DNA of 64,000 nt from Neorhizobium populisoli (GTDB taxonomy: Bacteria > Pseudomonadota > Alphaproteobacteria > Rhizobiales > Rhizobiaceae), in the NCBI RefSeq assembly GCF_019430945.1, contig NZ_JAHYCB010000010.1, forward strand, positions 62,001-126,000, written 5' to 3'. Position numbers and translations under genes: made by a program. The notes under the pieces were generated by a model. It saw only the letters and a list, made by a program, of their open reading frames with translations, had not been told where the DNA came from and did not search any database. Shown here piece by piece: positions 2,161-7,783 of this stretch (positions within the stretch are counted from its first letter, which is position 1; the number at the start of each line of letters is the position of its first letter).

Positions 2161-2246
2161 GCACAGGGGAAGACGAGCCCATTGGCATTTGGGTACGTTT
2201 TCCCTATGTGGAACTTTGATTTTGAAATTCTCTAGAGGATATGGGC

Positions 2247-2525
2247 GTGACTGCTACATTCGACAAAGTTGCCGACATCATCGCTGAAACCAGCGAAATC
2301 GACCGCGAGACGATCACGCCGGAAAGCCACACGATCGATGACCTCGGCATCGACAGCCTGGACTTTCTGGATATCGTCTTCGCGATCGACAAGGAATTCG
2401 GCATCAAGATTCCGCTGGAACAGTGGACGCAGGAAGTCAACGAAGGCAAGGTTTCGACCGAGGAATACTTCGTTCTCAAGAACCTCTGCGCCAAGATCGA
2501 CGAGCTGAGGGCGGCCAAGGGCTGA
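2247..2525 (+). CDS. acpXL: Acyl carrier protein AcpXL
   Basis: Special acyl carrier protein on which the C28 (omega-1)-hydroxy fatty acid of rhizobial lipid A is built. The phosphopantetheine site is the Ser of G-I-D-S-L-D (Ser37 from the GTG start). The protein is acidic and helical, 92 residues, which is the length I recall for AcpXL. The start is judged to be GTG at 2247: the A-G-A-G-G-A at 2234-2239 lies a normal distance away, whereas the in-frame ATG at 2241 sits only two bases after it and adds two residues. It is the first gene of the six-gene operon that ends with lpxXL. Confidence 0.95.
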
Positions 2526-2556
2526 TCGGTTTCGATCCTCCCGGGCCGGCAACCTG

Positions 2557-3030
2557 ATGCTGCTCGAATATTTCCAGATGATCGATCGCATCGAAGCGGT
2601 CGATCTTGCCGCCAAGACCCTGAAGGCGCGCTCCGTCGTTCCGTCGAAGAGCCCGGTTTTCGAGGGGCATTTCCCCGGAATGCCGCTGGTGCCGGGCGTG
2701 TTGCTGATCGAAACGATGGCGCAGGCGTCCGGAATGCTGGTGCTTGCCGCGACGGATTTCGCTGCCATGCCGTTCTTGATGACGGTCGACGGCGCCAAGA
2801 TGCGCACGTTCGTGGAGCCGGACGCGGTTCTCGACATCGAGGCGTTCCTGGAGCACGAAGGGTCCGGTTACGCCGTTACCACGGCCAAGATTACAAGCGG
2901 CGGCAAGAAGGTCTGCGACGCGCAGCTGAAGCTCCGCACCATGCCGTTCAGCGACATCCCGCTCGGCCCGATTGTGCGCAAGCGCGCCGAAGAGGTCGGC
3001 CTGATGGACGCGATCGCCGCCGGAGCTTGA
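2557..3030 (+). CDS. fabZ: 3-hydroxyacyl-ACP dehydratase FabZ-like (VLCFA cluster)
   Basis: 157-residue single hot-dog protein that removes water from 3-hydroxyacyl-AcpXL in each elongation cycle. The active-site stretch G-H-F-P-G-M-P-L-V-P-G-V-L (residues 37-49) supplies His38, and Glu52 follows 14 residues later, the same spacing as the His/Glu pair of E. coli FabZ. It lies 31 bases after acpXL with no obvious strong ribosome site, consistent with operon translation. The next gene is separated by about 220 bases holding a palindromic repeat. Confidence 0.92.
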   Translation: MLLEYFQMIDRIEAVDLAAKTLKARSVVPSKSPVFEGHFPGMPLVPGVLLIETMAQASGMLVLAATDFAAMPFLMTVDGAKMRTFVEPDAVLDIEAFLEHEGSGYAVTTAKITSGGKKVCDAQLKLRTMPFSDIPLGPIVRKRAEEVGLMDAIAAGA

Positions 3031-3097
3031 GAAAATACCGGCCTCTTCCAGTTGGAAGCGGCGAAGATATTCTTGTTAACGTTGCCGTTTGCTCGAT

Positions 3098-3178
3098 GTC
3101 ATCCTCGGGCTTGTCCCGAGGATCTGCAAACGTCAATTATTCGGGTGGTCAGATCCTTGGGACAAGCCCGAGGACGAC
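3098..3178. repeat. Intergenic palindromic repeat between fabZ and the first fabF
   Basis: Two 29-base arms, 3098-3126 and 3150-3178, are inverted copies matching at 27 of 29 positions around a 23-base centre. The arms contain the C-C-T-C-G-G-G-C-T-T-G-T-C-C-C core, which translates as D-P-R-D-K-P-E-D-D when read through and recurs between genes in many alphaproteobacteria. It lies inside the lipid A operon and would fold into a long hairpin in the mRNA. No coding role is apparent. Confidence 0.8.
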
Positions 3179-3249
3179 GAAGGAATGCCAGGCGTCGCCG
3201 TCCCATATCGCGGAGACGCTCAGACCGAGAGGCATTCGAAGAGGACATG

Positions 3250-4446
3250 ATGAAGTCTGACAATGATGTCGTGATCACCGGTATCGGGATCGTCACCTGC
3301 CAGGGCGTCGGCAAGGAACCGCATGTGGCGCTTCTGACTGCTGAGGAAGCTGGCGATCCTAAGATCGAGACCGAACGTTTCGCGCCTTACCCGATCCACC
3401 CCATGCCGGAAATCGATTGGACCGCTCAGGTGGGCAAAAAGGATGCGCGCCAGATGGAGAACTGGCAGCGGCTCGGCGTTTTCTCCGCCGGTCTGGCGCT
3501 CGACGATGCGGGCTTGAAGACGGATGCGGAAGCCTGTGCTTCGATGGACATGATCGTAGCGGCCGGCGGCGGCGAGCGCGACATCAAGGTGGATTCGCTG
3601 ATCGTCGATGAGGCGTTGAAGCGCAACGACCGCGAGATGCTGCTGAACGAGAAACTGACGACGGAGCTGCGCCCGACGCTGTTTCTGGCGCAGCTTTCCA
3701 ACCTCGTGGCCGGCAATATCTCGATCGTTCACAAGGTGACGGGCTCGTCGCGCACGTTCATGGGCGAAGAGGCGGCCGGTATCTCGGCTGTCGAGACCGC
3801 TTTCCACCGCATCAAGGCCGGTCAGTCGACCCATAGCCTCGTCGGCGGCGCTTTCGTCGCAGAACGGGCCGATATCCTTCTGCTGGTGGAAGGCATCCGG
3901 GCACATGCGACGGGTGAGTGGAACCCGCTCTGGTCCCGTTCTGCCGACAATGGCGGCGGTATGATCATGGGTTCGGTCGGCGCCTTCCTGGTGCTGGAAT
4001 CGCGTGCACATGCGGAAGCTCGCGGTGCTCATATCTACGCAGTAATCGATGCGATCGAAGGCGACCGCGGCAATCGCGATGAAGGCAGGCTGGAAAAACG
4101 GCTTTCCCGCATGGCGGAACATGCAGCCGGCGCTTCCAAAGCGGATATGGTCGTGTTTTCCGGCACGAGCGGCCTGATCGATCTCGCGGCTCGCGAGAAG
4201 GCTGTTATCGAGCAGGAATTTGCCGGCGCTACGGTCCGTGGCTATGGCGGCGTCACCGGGCACGGCATGGAAGCGCAATTCCCGCTCGGGCTGGCGCTTG
4301 CGGCACTCAGCCTCGATGGCGGCGCCAAGGTTCCGGCTTTCGATGCCAATAGCGAGAAGCCCATGACGGCGCCTGCTAAACACGCGGTCGTGACCACGGT
4401 CGGTTATACGCGCGGCGAGGGCCTTGCGGTCCTCTCGGCCGCGTAA
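3250..4446 (+). CDS. fabF2: Beta-ketoacyl-ACP synthase homologue of the VLCFA cluster (FabF2-type, active-site Cys absent)
   Basis: 398-residue thiolase-fold protein at the conserved fabF2 position of the acpXL operon. The nucleophile-elbow helix aligns as G-E-E-A-A-G-I-S-A-V, so the position of the catalytic Cys holds Glu174. The N-A-H-G-T-S-T segment of active synthases is replaced by a G-T-S-G-L segment; the G-H of the second His motif is kept. It therefore resembles a chain-length-factor subunit that would pair with the active FabF1 next door. The preferred start is ATG 3250, with A-A-G-A-G-G ending six bases upstream. An adjacent ATG at 3247 is too close to it, and open frame further upstream runs through the palindromic repeat. 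Confidence 0.85.
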   Translation: MKSDNDVVITGIGIVTCQGVGKEPHVALLTAEEAGDPKIETERFAPYPIHPMPEIDWTAQVGKKDARQMENWQRLGVFSAGLALDDAGLKTDAEACASMDMIVAAGGGERDIKVDSLIVDEALKRNDREMLLNEKLTTELRPTLFLAQLSNLVAGNISIVHKVTGSSRTFMGEEAAGISAVETAFHRIKAGQSTHSLVGGAFVAERADILLLVEGIRAHATGEWNPLWSRSADNGGGMIMGSVGAFLVLESRAHAEARGAHIYAVIDAIEGDRGNRDEGRLEKRLSRMAEHAAGASKADMVVFSGTSGLIDLAAREKAVIEQEFAGATVRGYGGVTGHGMEAQFPLGLALAALSLDGGAKVPAFDANSEKPMTAPAKHAVVTTVGYTRGEGLAVLSAA

Positions 4447-4458
4447 CGGAGCAATGAT

Positions 4459-5745
4459 ATGAGCGACAATCGCTTCAAGGATCATCTCGGCCGCCCGATC
4501 ATCGCGGTCACCGGCATGGGCGTCATCACCTCGCTCGGCCAAGGCGTGACGGACAACTGGACGGCTTTGACCTCCGGCACGTCCGGCATTCACAAGATCA
4601 ACCGTTTCCCGACCGAAAAGCTGTCGACCCGTATCGCCGGCACGGTGGATTTCATCGACGTTCCGGCGGAAAATTCCGTCGAGCGCTCTTTCGCCTTTGC
4701 CCGCGAAACGACGATCGAAGCGCTGGCCCAGGCCGGCCTTTCCGGTGATTTCGGCGGACCTCTGTTTCTTGCTGCCCCTCCGGTCGAGCCGGAATGGAGC
4801 GACCGTTTCGCGCTGGCCGACCGTGCCCCGCCGTCGAAGACCGAGGGTGACGCCTATGACCGGTTCCTCGCGGCGATGCGTGAGCGTCCCGATCCGGTCT
4901 TCCTTGAAGCGGTTCAGTTTGGCTCGATCTCGGAACGCCTTGCCGACATGTTCGGCACGCGCGGCCTTCCGGTGACGCTGTCGACCGCCTGTGCATCCGG
5001 CGTCACCGCCATCCAGCTTGGTGTCGAGGCAATCCGCCAGGGTCGCATGGACAAGGCGCTGGTTGCCGCGACCGACGGTTCGGTCAGCGCGGAAGCTTTG
5101 ATCCGCTTCTCGCTTCTTTCGGCCCTTTCCACCCAGAACGATCCGCCGGAAAAGGCATCCAAGCCGTTCAGCAAGGATCGCGACGGTTTCGTCATCGCCG
5201 AAGGTGCGGCGACGCTCGTGCTGGAATCGCTGGAATCGGCGATTGCCCGAGGCGCCAAGGTACTCGGCATCATGAAGGGCTGCGGCGAGAAGGCTGACCA
5301 CTTCCACCGTACCCGGTCTTCGCCGGATGGCGGCCCGGCCATCGCGTCGATCCGCGCAGCGCTCAGCGATGCCGGCATGGACGAAAGCGGCATCGGCTAC
5401 ATCAATGCGCATGGCACATCGACGCCGGAAAACGACAAGATGGAATACGGTTCGATGCTGGCCGTCTTCGGTGACAGCCTGAAGGACATTCCGGTGTCGT
5501 CGAACAAGTCGATGATCGGCCATACGCTGACCGCCGCCGGTGCCGTCGAGGCCGTCTTCTCGTTCCAGACGATGTTGACCGGCACGTTGCCGCCGACCAT
5601 CAACTACACCAATCCCGATCCGTCGATCGCGCTGGATGTGGTGCCGAACACGAAGCGGGATGCGCATCCGAAAGCCGTGCTTTCCAACTCCTTCGGCTTC
5701 GGCGGTCAGAACGCCAGCCTTGTCATGACGCTGGAACCAGCGTAA
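4459..5745 (+). CDS. fabF1: Beta-ketoacyl-ACP synthase II, active (FabF1 of VLCFA cluster)
   Basis: 428-residue condensing enzyme extending the acyl chain on AcpXL. The complete catalytic triad is visible: Cys178 in T-A-C-A-S-G-V, His318 in N-A-H-G-T-S-T-P and His355 in S-M-I-G-H-T-L. G-G-A-G at 4448-4451 is well placed for the ATG at 4459, 12 bases after the preceding gene. It contains about 30 extra residues between the N-terminal region and the nucleophile (around 100-150) compared with a minimal FabF. It probably pairs with the Cys-less homologue encoded just upstream. Confidence 0.93.
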   Translation: MSDNRFKDHLGRPIIAVTGMGVITSLGQGVTDNWTALTSGTSGIHKINRFPTEKLSTRIAGTVDFIDVPAENSVERSFAFARETTIEALAQAGLSGDFGGPLFLAAPPVEPEWSDRFALADRAPPSKTEGDAYDRFLAAMRERPDPVFLEAVQFGSISERLADMFGTRGLPVTLSTACASGVTAIQLGVEAIRQGRMDKALVAATDGSVSAEALIRFSLLSALSTQNDPPEKASKPFSKDRDGFVIAEGAATLVLESLESAIARGAKVLGIMKGCGEKADHFHRTRSSPDGGPAIASIRAALSDAGMDESGIGYINAHGTSTPENDKMEYGSMLAVFGDSLKDIPVSSNKSMIGHTLTAAGAVEAVFSFQTMLTGTLPPTINYTNPDPSIALDVVPNTKRDAHPKAVLSNSFGFGGQNASLVMTLEPA

Positions 5746-5805
5746 GGCCAGCGCCCAAACACATTAAAGACGACTGGAACGCCGTTCTGGCGAAGGAAGA
5801 CTATT

Positions 5806-6834
5806 ATGCGCGCGCTGCAACTGATCGATGACCGCAGGCTCGAGGCCGTGGACATTCCCGAGCCGGAAGCACCCGGCCCGGGTGAGGTGACGTTGCGCGT
5901 CAAGGCGGTTGCGCTGAACCATATCGACGTCTGGGGCTGGCGCGGCATGGCATTCGCCAAGCGCAAGATGCCGCTGACGATCGGCGCGGAAGCGTCCGGC
6001 GTAGTGGAGGCGATCGGTCCCGGCGTGTCGAATGTCTTGCCGGGCCAGCTCGTTTCGATCTACGGCGCGCGCACCTGCGGTCTCTGCAAGCCGTGCCGCG
6101 AAAAGCGCGACAACCTCTGCGAACACGTTTCCGGCGTCCACGGCTTCCATCTGGATGGTTTTGCGCAGGAGAAGGCGAACATTCCGGCCCGCCAGCTGGT
6201 GCCGGCACCTCCGGGTATCGATGCGGTCGCCGCGGCGCTTGCTCCGGTGACCTTCGGCACGGTCGAGCACATGCTGTTCGACAATGCCAAGCTGCAGCCG
6301 GGCGAGACCATCCTCGTGCATGCCGGCGGTTCGGGCATCGGCTCGGCCGCCATCCAGCTTGCCAAGAAGATGGGCTGCACCGTCATCACCACCGTCGGCT
6401 CCGACGACAAGATCGAGAAGGCCAAGGCACTCGGCGCCGATCACGTCATCAACTACCGCAAGGACCGTTTCGAAGGCGTGGTGCGCAAGCTGACCAAGAA
6501 GAAGGGCGTTGACGTCGTCTTCGAACATGTCGGCAAAGACACCTGGGCGGGTTCGATGCTGTGCATGAAGCGCGGCGGGCGGCTTGTCACTTGCGGTTCG
6601 ACATCCGGCGTTTCGACCGATATGAACCTGATGATGCTATTCCAGCAGCAATTGAAGCTGCTCGGCTCCTTCGGCTGCCGCATGGAAAACATGGCGGACG
6701 CGATGCAGAAGATGGCACAGGGCATCGTCCATCCGGTGATCGACACGGAAGTGACCTTCGACGAGATCGACCGGGCGCTGGAGCGGATGGAAGGACGTCA
6801 GATCTTCGGCAAGATCGTCCTTCGCATGGACTGA
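5806..6834 (+). CDS. MDR-family zinc-binding dehydrogenase of the VLCFA cluster
   Basis: 342-residue medium-chain dehydrogenase/reductase at the position called adh2 in rhizobial acpXL clusters. The structural zinc lobe is intact (Cys91, Cys94, Cys97, Cys105), as is a nucleotide-binding loop H-A-G-G-S-G-I-G-S-A-A (about 166-176). Where classical alcohol dehydrogenases have the catalytic-zinc Cys, this protein reads N-H-I-D-V-W-G-W, so it may act as a zinc-independent enoyl or quinone reductase. An enoyl-ACP reduction step in chain elongation would fit the operon, but that is inference. GGAAGA precedes the ATG by five bases. Confidence 0.85.
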   Translation: MRALQLIDDRRLEAVDIPEPEAPGPGEVTLRVKAVALNHIDVWGWRGMAFAKRKMPLTIGAEASGVVEAIGPGVSNVLPGQLVSIYGARTCGLCKPCREKRDNLCEHVSGVHGFHLDGFAQEKANIPARQLVPAPPGIDAVAAALAPVTFGTVEHMLFDNAKLQPGETILVHAGGSGIGSAAIQLAKKMGCTVITTVGSDDKIEKAKALGADHVINYRKDRFEGVVRKLTKKKGVDVVFEHVGKDTWAGSMLCMKRGGRLVTCGSTSGVSTDMNLMMLFQQQLKLLGSFGCRMENMADAMQKMAQGIVHPVIDTEVTFDEIDRALERMEGRQIFGKIVLRMD

Positions 6835-6850
6835 CAAGAGGTTCTGCCCT

Positions 6851-7783
6851 TTGAAGATGTTCATCACCCGGATCGTGATCGCGCTGCGCAATTTCCAGCA
6901 ATGGCTGGTGGCGCAGCTCGCGTTCGGGCTCCTCAATTTTCTGAAGATCTTTCCGGCTGACCCGGCTATCCGGTTTGCCGATCGGATGGTGCGGCGCATC
7001 GGCCCCAAGCTCAAGAAGCGTCACAACCTGATGCTCGTCAACCTCCGGAACGCCTATCCGGAAAAGACGGATGCGGAGCTGGAGGAGATTGCGATTGCAA
7101 GCTGGGGCCATATGGGCCGGCTTGCGGCCGAATATGTCTTCCTCGACCGGCTGTTCGATTTCGATCCGGAGCGAACGGAGCCGGGCAGGGTGGAAGTGTC
7201 GGGCGCTCCGATCTTCCTCGATCTGCGCGACAATCCGCGGCCCTTTATCGTGTTTACCGCCCATACCGGCAATTTCGAGCTGCTGCCGGTGGCCGGCAAG
7301 GCGTACGGGCTGGAGGTTACGGTGATGTTCCGGCCGCCCAACAACCCCTATATCGCCAAGAAGATTTTCGATTTCCGTGCAAGCCGCATGGGCGCGCTGG
7401 TACCCTCACATGCCGGCTCGTCCTTTTCCCTGGCTCGTCGCCTGGATGAAGGCGGTGGGATCGGCGTCCTGGTCGACCAGAAATTCCGCAAGGGACTGAA
7501 GACGAACTTCTTCGGCCGCCCTGTGCAGACCAATCCGCTTGTGGCCAAGCTGGTGCGCCAGTTCGATGCGGAGGTCTATCCAGCCCGCTGCATTCGTCTG
7601 CCGGATAATCGCTACCGGCTGGAAATCGAGCCGAAGATCGAAATGCCGCGCGACGAGAACGGTAAACTGGACCTGCAGGCTGTCGGTCAGTTGCTCAATG
7701 ACAAGGTCGAAAGCTGGGTTCGGGAGCATCCGGAACAGTGGCTCTGGTACCACGACAGGTGGCATATCAAGCGGTATCTGTAG
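6851..7783 (+). CDS. lpxXL: Lipid A VLCFA acyltransferase LpxXL (HtrB/LpxL family)
   Basis: 310-residue inner-membrane acyltransferase that transfers the long hydroxyacyl chain from AcpXL to lipid A. It has an N-terminal hydrophobic segment (about 18-35) and the LpxL-family H-X4-E motif as His138-T-G-N-F-Glu143. Downstream come F-R-P-P-N-N-P and G-V-L-V-D-Q-K, both usual for the family. The TTG at 6851 lies eight bases after GAGG. The ATG at 6857 would shorten the protein by two residues and sits further from it. It is the last gene of the operon. Confidence 0.92.
   Translation: MKMFITRIVIALRNFQQWLVAQLAFGLLNFLKIFPADPAIRFADRMVRRIGPKLKKRHNLMLVNLRNAYPEKTDAELEEIAIASWGHMGRLAAEYVFLDRLFDFDPERTEPGRVEVSGAPIFLDLRDNPRPFIVFTAHTGNFELLPVAGKAYGLEVTVMFRPPNNPYIAKKIFDFRASRMGALVPSHAGSSFSLARRLDEGGGIGVLVDQKFRKGLKTNFFGRPVQTNPLVAKLVRQFDAEVYPARCIRLPDNRYRLEIEPKIEMPRDENGKLDLQAVGQLLNDKVESWVREHPEQWLWYHDRWHIKRYL

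What the first reader, a model, noticed from the sequence alone, without database searches (positions are those of the whole stretch)
3250..4446. Ketosynthase with Glu in place of the catalytic Cys next to an active one in the lipid A operon
The first of two adjacent fabF genes has the condensing-enzyme fold, but the nucleophile Cys aligns with Glu174 and the N-A-H-G-T motif is lost, while the second gene keeps Cys178, His318 and His355. This mirrors the KS/chain-length-factor pairs of type II polyketide synthases, where the CLF has Gln there. It suggests a heterodimer in which the inactive subunit measures the C28 chain or decarboxylates malonyl-AcpXL.
Basis: partly seen in the sequence, partly recalled or inferred. 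Interest (0 to 1): 0.75.

Follow-up and report, generated by a model that had tools for sequence, protein, structure and literature searches.

The report
Inactive ketosynthase partner for lipid A
Rhizobia and their relatives build the very long fatty acid of their outer membrane with two neighbouring enzyme genes, one of which has lost the chemistry of its family and most likely serves as a shaped partner subunit for the other, as chain-length factors do in antibiotic-making enzymes.

Summary
[quoted passage not shown] FabF2XL has Glu174 (motif SRTFMGEE) where FabF has its catalytic Cys. That Glu is present in 156 of 156 distinct orthologues, while the catalytic His and Lys positions decay. 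FabF1XL keeps Cys178, His318, Lys350 and His355.

The two co-occur: of 297 genomes of the order, 78 have both over cut-off, none has FabF2XL alone, and one has FabF1XL with FabF2XL split over two contigs. FabF2XL is most conserved in residues 101-166, where FabF1XL is least conserved. Those residues gain model confidence when FabF1XL is present. The two-domain model (pTM 0.93) overlays the solved PfaC ketosynthase/chain-length-factor didomain.

A published A. fabrum fabF2XL mutant makes no very-long-chain fatty acid (PMC11901934). Best reading: a KS/CLF-like heterodimer, confidence 0.7. The decarboxylase variant is disfavoured. Chain measuring is untested. Membership in the chain-length-factor clade is undecided. 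My searches of the held library found no paper making the connection.

The parts
2241..2525 (+). acpXL, dedicated acyl carrier protein
   Evidence: NCBIfam PRK06508, 190.5 bits against cut-off 83
2557..3030 (+). fabZXL, FabA/FabZ-like dehydratase
   Evidence: Pfam FabA 66 bits; FabZ models below their cut-off
3250..4446 (+). fabF2XL, non-catalytic ketosynthase-fold subunit
   Evidence: PRK06519 593.5 bits; AlphaFold pLDDT 92.7, pTM 0.91; VIA Z 41.8 to 42.9 for the 50 listed ketosynthase entries
3748..3771 (+). SRTFMGEE motif; Glu174 codon 3769-3771 at the nucleophile position, Glu173 codon 3766-3768
   Evidence: E174 in 156 of 156 distinct orthologues; G172, E173, E174 invariant in the 62-row alignment
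3550..3747 (+). residues 101-166 of FabF2XL, most conserved segment, expected to face FabF1XL and its acyl tunnel
   Evidence: mean pairwise identity 0.66 against 0.40 for the matching segment of FabF1XL; pLDDT of 101-150 higher in the model with FabF1XL
4459..5745 (+). fabF1XL, catalytically complete ketosynthase
   Evidence: PRK06501 747 bits against cut-off 629; Cys178, His318, Lys350, His355
4990..4992 (+). catalytic Cys178 codon of FabF1XL
   Evidence: sequence and alignment
5806..6834 (+). 'adhXL', MDR reductase without the catalytic zinc ligands; possible enoyl reductase
6851..7783 (+). lpxXL, VLCFA acyltransferase of lipid A
   Evidence: PRK06553 473 bits against cut-off 273

Best explanation
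FabF2XL is a pseudo-ketosynthase that works as the obligate non-catalytic half of a FabF1XL-FabF2XL heterodimer, in the manner of a chain-length factor. FabF1XL carries out every condensation through Cys178, His318 and His355. FabF2XL supplies the partner side of the acyl tunnel at the dimer interface, chiefly through residues 101-166, so that acyl-AcpXL chains far longer than C18 can be held and elongated to about C28. The invariant GEE motif at its former nucleophile elbow is kept for a structural or partner-binding role, not for thiol chemistry. Shown by computation: loss of the catalytic residues across orthologues, co-occurrence and near-strict adjacency, and the conservation pattern. Predicted: the heterodimer geometry. 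Taken from print: the requirement for FabF2XL in vivo. Inferred: tunnel shaping and chain-length control.
For: (1) Glu at the nucleophile column in 156 of 156 distinct orthologues, including 74 of 74 from HMM searches. FabF His303 column: G143, A9, S1, N1, gap 2. Lys335 column: no Lys in 155, one gap. FabF1XL: Cys in 155 of 157 (one X, one gap), first His and Lys in 156 (one gap), second His in 155 (two gaps). (2) Order sample of 297 genomes: both families over cut-off in 78, FabF2XL alone in 0, FabF1XL alone in 1 (G594, whose FabF2XL hits lie on two contigs), neither in 218; Fisher p 8e-72, not corrected for relatedness. Same strand with FabF2XL upstream in 118 of 118 loci of the first set (L025 repeats the window). 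Duplicated pairs in L123, L124, L143, L145. (3) Partial correlation of F2 and F1 distances 0.67, highest of 10 gene pairs, 88 single-copy loci. (4) Of 36 invariant F2 residues 20 fall in 101-174 (p 1.6e-7) and 3 in the last 138; of 74 invariant F1 residues the figures are 8 (p 0.13) and 34 of the last 164 (p 0.15); segment bounds were set after seeing the alignments. (5) Read-through F2-F1 model: pLDDT 93.1, pTM 0.93, linker 400-406 under 50; F2 blocks 101-150 are 88, 93, 94, 92, 81 against 76, 77, 86, 82, 65 alone. Foldseek aligns it to the PfaC KS-CLF didomain 6riw at TMq 0.73 over 950 columns, against 0.44-0.46 for the listed single-domain rows. (6) A. fabrum fabF2XL mutant: no VLCFA, LpxXL still acts, fabF2XL alone complements partly (PMC11901934, sections 8 and 14 read).
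Against: No biochemical evidence of a heterodimer. The gain in pLDDT of 101-150 is confounded by a somewhat different alignment (72 F2 rows against 62). VIA on the fused model lists 50 single-domain entries over the F1 half only; 6riw is not among them. The FabF2XL profile matches FabF (100 bits) better than the actinorhodin CLF (66 bits). The canonical Gln of CLFs is absent and the gene order is reversed relative to the KS-CLF pair in L161. In G434 the second FabF2XL and second FabF1XL lie on different contigs, not adjacent (L126, L127). Operon neighbours share a phylogeny, so co-occurrence also fits two separate enzymes of one pathway; the fabZXL-lpxXL partial correlation is nearly as high (0.59). 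Invariance may partly reflect one order's shared descent. Complementation in A. fabrum was only partial.
Confidence: 0.7

Rival explanations
1. FabF2XL is a separate homodimeric decarboxylase (KSQ-like) that makes acetyl-AcpXL starter or regulates malonyl-AcpXL; Glu takes the place of Gln.
For: The nucleophile is replaced by a polar residue of Gln-like shape; the FabF His340 equivalent is kept in 144 of the 155 distinct orthologues with a residue there.
Against: The FabF His303 equivalent is absent in all 154 orthologues with a residue there and Lys335 in all 155; His340 is lost in 11. The C-terminal third, which holds these positions, is the least conserved part (0.38). A carboxylate would repel malonate (inference).
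Confidence: 0.07
2. FabF2XL does not bind FabF1XL but acts as an AcpXL- or LpxXL-binding scaffold that channels acyl-AcpXL.
For: Same operon and co-occurrence; required in vivo although it lacks catalytic residues (PMC11901934).
Against: The conservation peak lies on residues 101-166, their model confidence is higher with FabF1XL, and F2 distances track F1 rather than LpxXL (partial r 0.67 against 0.14).
Confidence: 0.12
3. FabF2XL is an enzyme with new chemistry in which the GEE carboxylates act as catalytic residues, for example in handling the (omega-1)-hydroxy starter.
For: E173, E174 and several other charged residues (R110, D111, D115, R141, R168) are invariant among 62 diverse rows, stronger conservation than a spent active site would need.
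Against: I know of no ketosynthase-fold enzyme of this kind (recalled, not searched); the invariants also fit salt bridges that hold the fold or interface.
Confidence: 0.08
4. FabF2XL is a decayed, dispensable duplicate.
For: Catalytic residues lost; faster evolution than FabF1XL (mean distance 0.42 against 0.24).
Against: No stop inside any over-cut-off match listed; over cut-off in 78 of 79 FabF1XL genomes; strongly conserved in parts; mutant lacks VLCFA (PMC11901934).
Confidence: 0.02

Closest known systems
Actinorhodin KS-CLF (1tqy) and other type II polyketide KS/chain-length-factor pairs
   Same: Active ketosynthase and inactive ketosynthase-fold partner encoded side by side; the CLF of L161 lacks the Cys and the NAHGT His (Q and D there)
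   Different: Glu, not Gln; pseudo-subunit gene comes first; reduced C26-C30 fatty acid on AcpXL instead of a polyketide; the FabF2XL profile scores FabF above the actinorhodin CLF
PfaC KS-CLF didomain of polyunsaturated fatty acid synthases (6riw)
   Same: KS plus CLF geometry matches the two-domain model (TMq 0.73, TMt 0.67); serves a long-chain fatty acid pathway (recalled)
   Different: One fused polypeptide, KS first (recalled); 15% identity
ApeO-ApeC of aryl polyene clusters
   Same: KS-CLF heterodimer in a fatty-acid-like pathway of Gram-negative bacteria (PMC8358021, passages read)
   Different: ApeC is about half size, with the second thiolase domain mostly lost; FabF2XL is full length
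AmcF-AmcG of cispentacin biosynthesis
   Same: KS with a partner that lacks functional motifs, whose role was hard to predict before a heterodimer was found (PMC10698177, passages read)
   Different: Single elongation and cyclisation; AmcG lacks some secondary structures of CLF
NCBIfam PRK06519 / FabF2XL of rhizobial VLCFA clusters
   Same: This is that protein; locus, gene order and requirement for VLCFA are known
   Different: Named a beta-ketoacyl-ACP synthase, which its active site does not support

Membership tests
Rhizobial VLCFA locus / PRK06519 (FabF2XL) | Score over the curated cut-off and place in the acpXL-lpxXL cluster | tested here: met
   593.5 bits against 320; gene order 2241-7783
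Type II PKS chain-length factor | Full ketosynthase fold | tested here: met
   AlphaFold pLDDT 92.7; VIA best Z 42.9, rmsd 3.3, 376 aligned
Type II PKS chain-length factor | Catalytic Cys replaced | tested here: met
   Glu in 156 of 156
Type II PKS chain-length factor | Replacement is Gln (canonical CLF; recalled, and seen in L161) | tested here: not met
   Glu in all 156; L161 CLF has Q
Type II PKS chain-length factor | Encoded next to its ketosynthase | tested here: met
   118 of 118 loci of the first set; 78 of 84 over-cut-off hits in the order sample, with one true exception in G434
Type II PKS chain-length factor | Heterodimer with the ketosynthase | tested here: inconclusive
   Predicted only: fused model pTM 0.93, match to 6riw; no control fold
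Type II PKS chain-length factor | Same clade as known CLFs | tested here: inconclusive
   F2 with the single annotated CLF not rejected, p-AU 0.765; F2 with F1 not rejected, p-AU 0.55; long branch
Type II PKS chain-length factor | Controls product chain length | not testable with these tools
   needs swaps or in vitro assay
KSQ-type malonyl decarboxylase | Gln at the nucleophile position with both catalytic His kept (recalled) | tested here: not met
   Glu 156 of 156; His303 equivalent absent in all 154 with a residue there
FabF / KAS II enzyme | Cys-His-His triad and Lys335 | tested here: not met
   FabF1XL does meet it

The most novel reading that the evidence does not exclude
The lipid A locus is a complete, highly reducing, polyketide-style fatty acid synthase: a FabF1XL-FabF2XL KS/CLF heterodimer, AcpXL, FabZXL and a zinc-site-less MDR enoyl reductase (now called alcohol dehydrogenase) build the (omega-1)-hydroxy chain on AcpXL from a 3-hydroxybutyryl primer, which would explain why the chains reported in A. 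fabrum (26:0-25OH, 28:0-27OH, 30:0-29OH; PMC11901934) all carry the hydroxyl at omega-1. FabF2XL, through its invariant GEE motif and interface segment, selects starter and final length. The pair would be a chain-length-factor system in core envelope lipid synthesis, evolved or recruited separately from antibiotic pathways.
Probability: 0.2. Interest if true: 0.82.

Novelty: new variant of a known kind. Interest (0 to 1): 0.6.

Why it matters
If right, a gene annotated as a second ketosynthase of the rhizobial VLCFA pathway is a non-catalytic partner subunit, and chain-length-factor logic extends from antibiotic and pigment synthesis to the lipid A of plant symbionts and their relatives. It makes two open questions directly testable: how these bacteria reach C28 when FabF stops near C18 (recalled), and why two 'ketosynthases' are both needed. 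It also offers a full-length CLF analogue, with Glu instead of Gln, for testing what that residue does, and a handle for making very long (omega-1)-hydroxy fatty acids.

Tried and rejected
Tree placement: FabF2XL is one clade on a branch of 2.78 changes per column (56 rows: 22 of 63 F2, 22 of 46 F1, 12 others, a single annotated CLF); neither kinship with that CLF nor with FabF1XL was rejected, so origin is left open. I tried to read gating residues off a sequence alignment: in FabF1XL the stretch matching FabF 96-150 is too diverged (9% identity) to trust single positions, so no residue-level tunnel claim is made. The structural comparison does not discriminate CLF from FabF: the 50 rows span Z 42.9 to 41.8, and the actinorhodin CLF is rank 19. 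VIA on the fused model listed 50 single-domain entries over the F1 half only and so neither confirms nor contradicts the didomain match. Papers: fabF2XL is in 4 papers; passages of three were read, the fourth (PMC5539429) was seen as a listing only. AcpXL with 'chain length factor' is in none. The listings, judged by title and start of abstract, showed none that makes the link; those were cut short (30 of 358, 25 of 81, 20 of 34). The library lacks most subscription journals, so earlier notice of the missing Cys cannot be excluded; the S. meliloti mutant paper that I recalled (JBC 2011) is not held under the DOI I tried. Considered and dropped: artefact of a frameshift (no stop inside the over-cut-off matches listed) and biased sampling (HMM-found loci agree).

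Full report
WHAT IS THERE. [quoted passage not shown] NCBIfam gives AcpXL PRK06508, FabF2XL PRK06519 (593.5 bits, cut-off 320), FabF1XL PRK06501 (747, cut-off 629) and LpxXL PRK06553 (473, cut-off 273). The genome is probably a member of the Rhizobiaceae: the first 14 named loci are from Xaviernesmea, Rhizobium, Neorhizobium and unnamed Rhizobiales at 86-89% protein identity.

THE OBSERVATION. FabF2XL Glu174 sits where E. coli FabF has Cys163, by MAFFT, by HMMER of the FabF2XL profile against solved FabF chains and, relative to FabF1XL Cys178, by hhalign. The NAHGT His is Gly and Lys335 is Gly; the His340 equivalent is kept in the window protein. The predicted structure (pLDDT 92.7, pTM 0.91) puts residue 174 between strand 167-171 and helix 176-189, the nucleophile elbow. 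Its only cysteines are 17 and 96. FabF1XL keeps Cys178, His318, Lys350 and His355.

CONSERVATION. I gathered FabF2XL from 30 genome-search loci, 80 named genome contigs, 2 plasmid records, 43 further genome stretches and the window: 158 sequences, 156 distinct. All 156 have Glu at the nucleophile column. One search found loci partly through a pattern containing this motif, so I separated the sources: HMM-found 29 + 45 = 74 of 74, tblastn-found 2 of 2, pattern-found 79 of 79, and the window itself. The eight-residue motif is SRTFMGEE in 140 of 156 and ends in GEE in all 156. Meanwhile the FabF His303 column is G143, A9, S1, N1, gap 2; the Lys335 column holds no Lys (155 residues, one gap); the His340 column is H144, Q5, T3, Y1, S1, N1, gap 1. 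So the Glu looks selected while the rest of the catalytic site decays. FabF1XL has Cys in 155 of 157 (one X, one gap), the first His and the Lys in 156 (one gap), the second His in 155 (two gaps).

THE PAIR. In a sample of 297 genomes of the order, both families exceed their cut-offs in 78, FabF1XL alone in 1 (G594, whose FabF2XL hits of 315 and 209 bits lie on two contigs), FabF2XL alone in 0, neither in 218 (Fisher p 8e-72, no correction for relatedness). 78 of 84 over-cut-off FabF2XL hits lie directly upstream of an over-cut-off FabF1XL. Of the six others, four (L123, L143, L145, L147) lie beside a FabF1XL that scores below the cut-off or is cut; G510's is split over two contigs, with its C-terminal piece upstream of FabF1XL; and in G434 the second FabF2XL and the second FabF1XL lie on different contigs, not adjacent (L126, L127), the one exception found. 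In the first set of 118 loci (L025 repeats the window) the two genes are on one strand with FabF2XL first in 118 of 118; the estimated spacer is 4-13 nt in 90. Pairs are duplicated in L124 (tandem), L123, L143 and L145, and a pair occurs on a conjugative Bradyrhizobium plasmid with no AcpXL found in 9 kb (L117). In the phylum sample 35 of 398 genomes are over the FabF2XL cut-off, one of them outside the order (G032, same class).

WHERE THE CONSERVATION LIES. On 33 matched loci, mean pairwise identity of FabF2XL is 0.66 in residues 101-166 and 0.38 in residues 261-398; for FabF1XL the matching figures are 0.40 and 0.67. Twenty of 36 invariant FabF2XL residues lie in 101-174 (p 1.6e-7) and 3 of 36 in 261-398; for FabF1XL it is 8 of 74 in 104-178 (p 0.13) and 34 of 74 in 265-428 (p 0.15). 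I set these bounds after seeing the alignments. In ketosynthases the segment after residue about 100 contributes to the dimer interface and reaches the partner's acyl pocket (recalled; a review states that the channel lies at the KS-CLF junction, PMC7949117, passages read). In FabF1XL this segment is only 9% identical to FabF, the lowest of the ketosynthases compared. Distance matrices over 88 loci with one copy of each gene (L116, L117 and L025 left out): partial correlation of FabF2XL with FabF1XL 0.67, highest of ten pairs; fabZXL-lpxXL is next at 0.59, so this is supportive only.

STRUCTURE. FabF2XL alone matches ketosynthase structures (VIA best Z 42.9, rmsd 3.3, 376 residues; the 50 rows span 42.9 to 41.8). 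A pTM that high over 831 residues implies that the two domains are placed relative to each other. FabF2XL blocks 101-150 are 88, 93, 94, 92, 81 (with FabF1XL) against 76, 77, 86, 82, 65 (alone); the alignments also differ (72 against 62 F2 rows). Foldseek aligns the chain to the PfaC KS-CLF didomain 6riw over 950 columns with TMq 0.73, whereas the listed single-domain rows have 0.44-0.46. VIA on the same model listed only single-domain entries over the FabF1XL half. Caution: ketosynthase dimers share this geometry and no control pair could be folded.

LITERATURE. In Agrobacterium fabrum C58 an insertion in fabF2XL removed all VLCFA; LpxXL, downstream in the same operon, still acted in the mutant, and fabF2XL alone restored VLCFA partly (PMC11901934, passages and sections 8 and 14 read). 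That argues against a purely polar effect, although it does not exclude reduced FabF1XL. In Bradyrhizobium ORS278 attempts to mutate acpXL, fabZXL, fabF1XL and fabF2XL failed (PMC5613085, passages). In the passages seen FabF2XL is called an elongation protein (PMC5613085) or a beta-ketoacyl-ACP synthase (PMC7663294); the main text of PMC11901934 holds none of the terms 'chain length factor', 'heterodimer', 'ketoacyl', 'active site' or 'cysteine'. No held paper has both AcpXL and 'chain length factor'.

MECHANISM. The best reading is a KS/CLF-like heterodimer: FabF1XL condenses, FabF2XL completes and shapes the acyl tunnel. Decarboxylation by FabF2XL is unlikely because the His303 and Lys335 equivalents are gone. 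Ruler function and starter choice are untested.

RELATION TO KNOWN SYSTEMS. It works like a chain-length factor but is not filed as a type II PKS CLF: the Gln is absent, the gene order is reversed against L161, the profile scores FabF above the actinorhodin CLF (100 against 66 bits), and the tree leaves its origin open. The AmcG case (PMC10698177, passages) is a precedent for a ketosynthase partner without functional motifs that its authors separate from CLF. I rate this a new variant of a known kind.

Noticed in passing
window 5806-6834: The 'alcohol dehydrogenase' of the VLCFA locus lacks two protein ligands of the catalytic zinc known from zinc alcohol dehydrogenases (positions recalled): Asn38 in place of Cys in 116 of 116 orthologues, Ala (110) or Val (6) for His in 116 of 116, while the four structural-zinc Cys are kept in 116 of 116. 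Family hits below cut-off include quinone oxidoreductase and crotonyl-CoA reductase; the best solved match, 2eih, is named alcohol dehydrogenase but shows the same Asn and Ala in the printed alignment. It may be the pathway's enoyl reductase.
   Followed up: partly
window 3102-3174: An inverted repeat with two exact 16-nt half-sites (GGGACAAGCCCGAGGA) forms a strong hairpin between fabZXL and fabF2XL (z -7.4); the half-site occurs 10 times in the genome, these two included, and 0 times in the reversed control. It looks like a small repetitive palindromic element, at the place where A. fabrum has a transcription boundary (PMC11901934).
   Followed up: partly
L117:3252-6507: A FabF2XL-FabF1XL pair on a conjugative Bradyrhizobium plasmid (NZ_CP100605), next to a methyltransferase gene, with no acpXL, fabZXL or lpxXL found in the 9 kb: the pair can travel as a unit, perhaps for another lipid.
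   Followed up: no
L123, L143, L145; L124: Genomes with two FabF2XL-FabF1XL pairs: in one family a diverged pair sits with acpXL and fabZXL and a more typical pair about 6-7 kb away; in L124 the pairs are in tandem around the dehydrogenase gene. In L143 and L145 the diverged FabF2XL frame is shorter (326 and 248 aa), perhaps C-terminal reduction as in ApeC, or assembly error.
   Followed up: partly
L011, L026: L011 (genus g3 of the window's family) and L026 (a 1.5-Mb genome of the same family) show no fabZXL between acpXL and fabF2XL, in line with a table note that Mesorhizobium loti uses housekeeping FabZ (PMC7663294, passage).
   Followed up: no
L114:1626-2912: A Streptomyces plasmid cluster holds another ketosynthase-fold protein with the catalytic Cys column changed (GTADSG, Ala at that column) beside ketosynthases that keep the Cys.
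   Followed up: no
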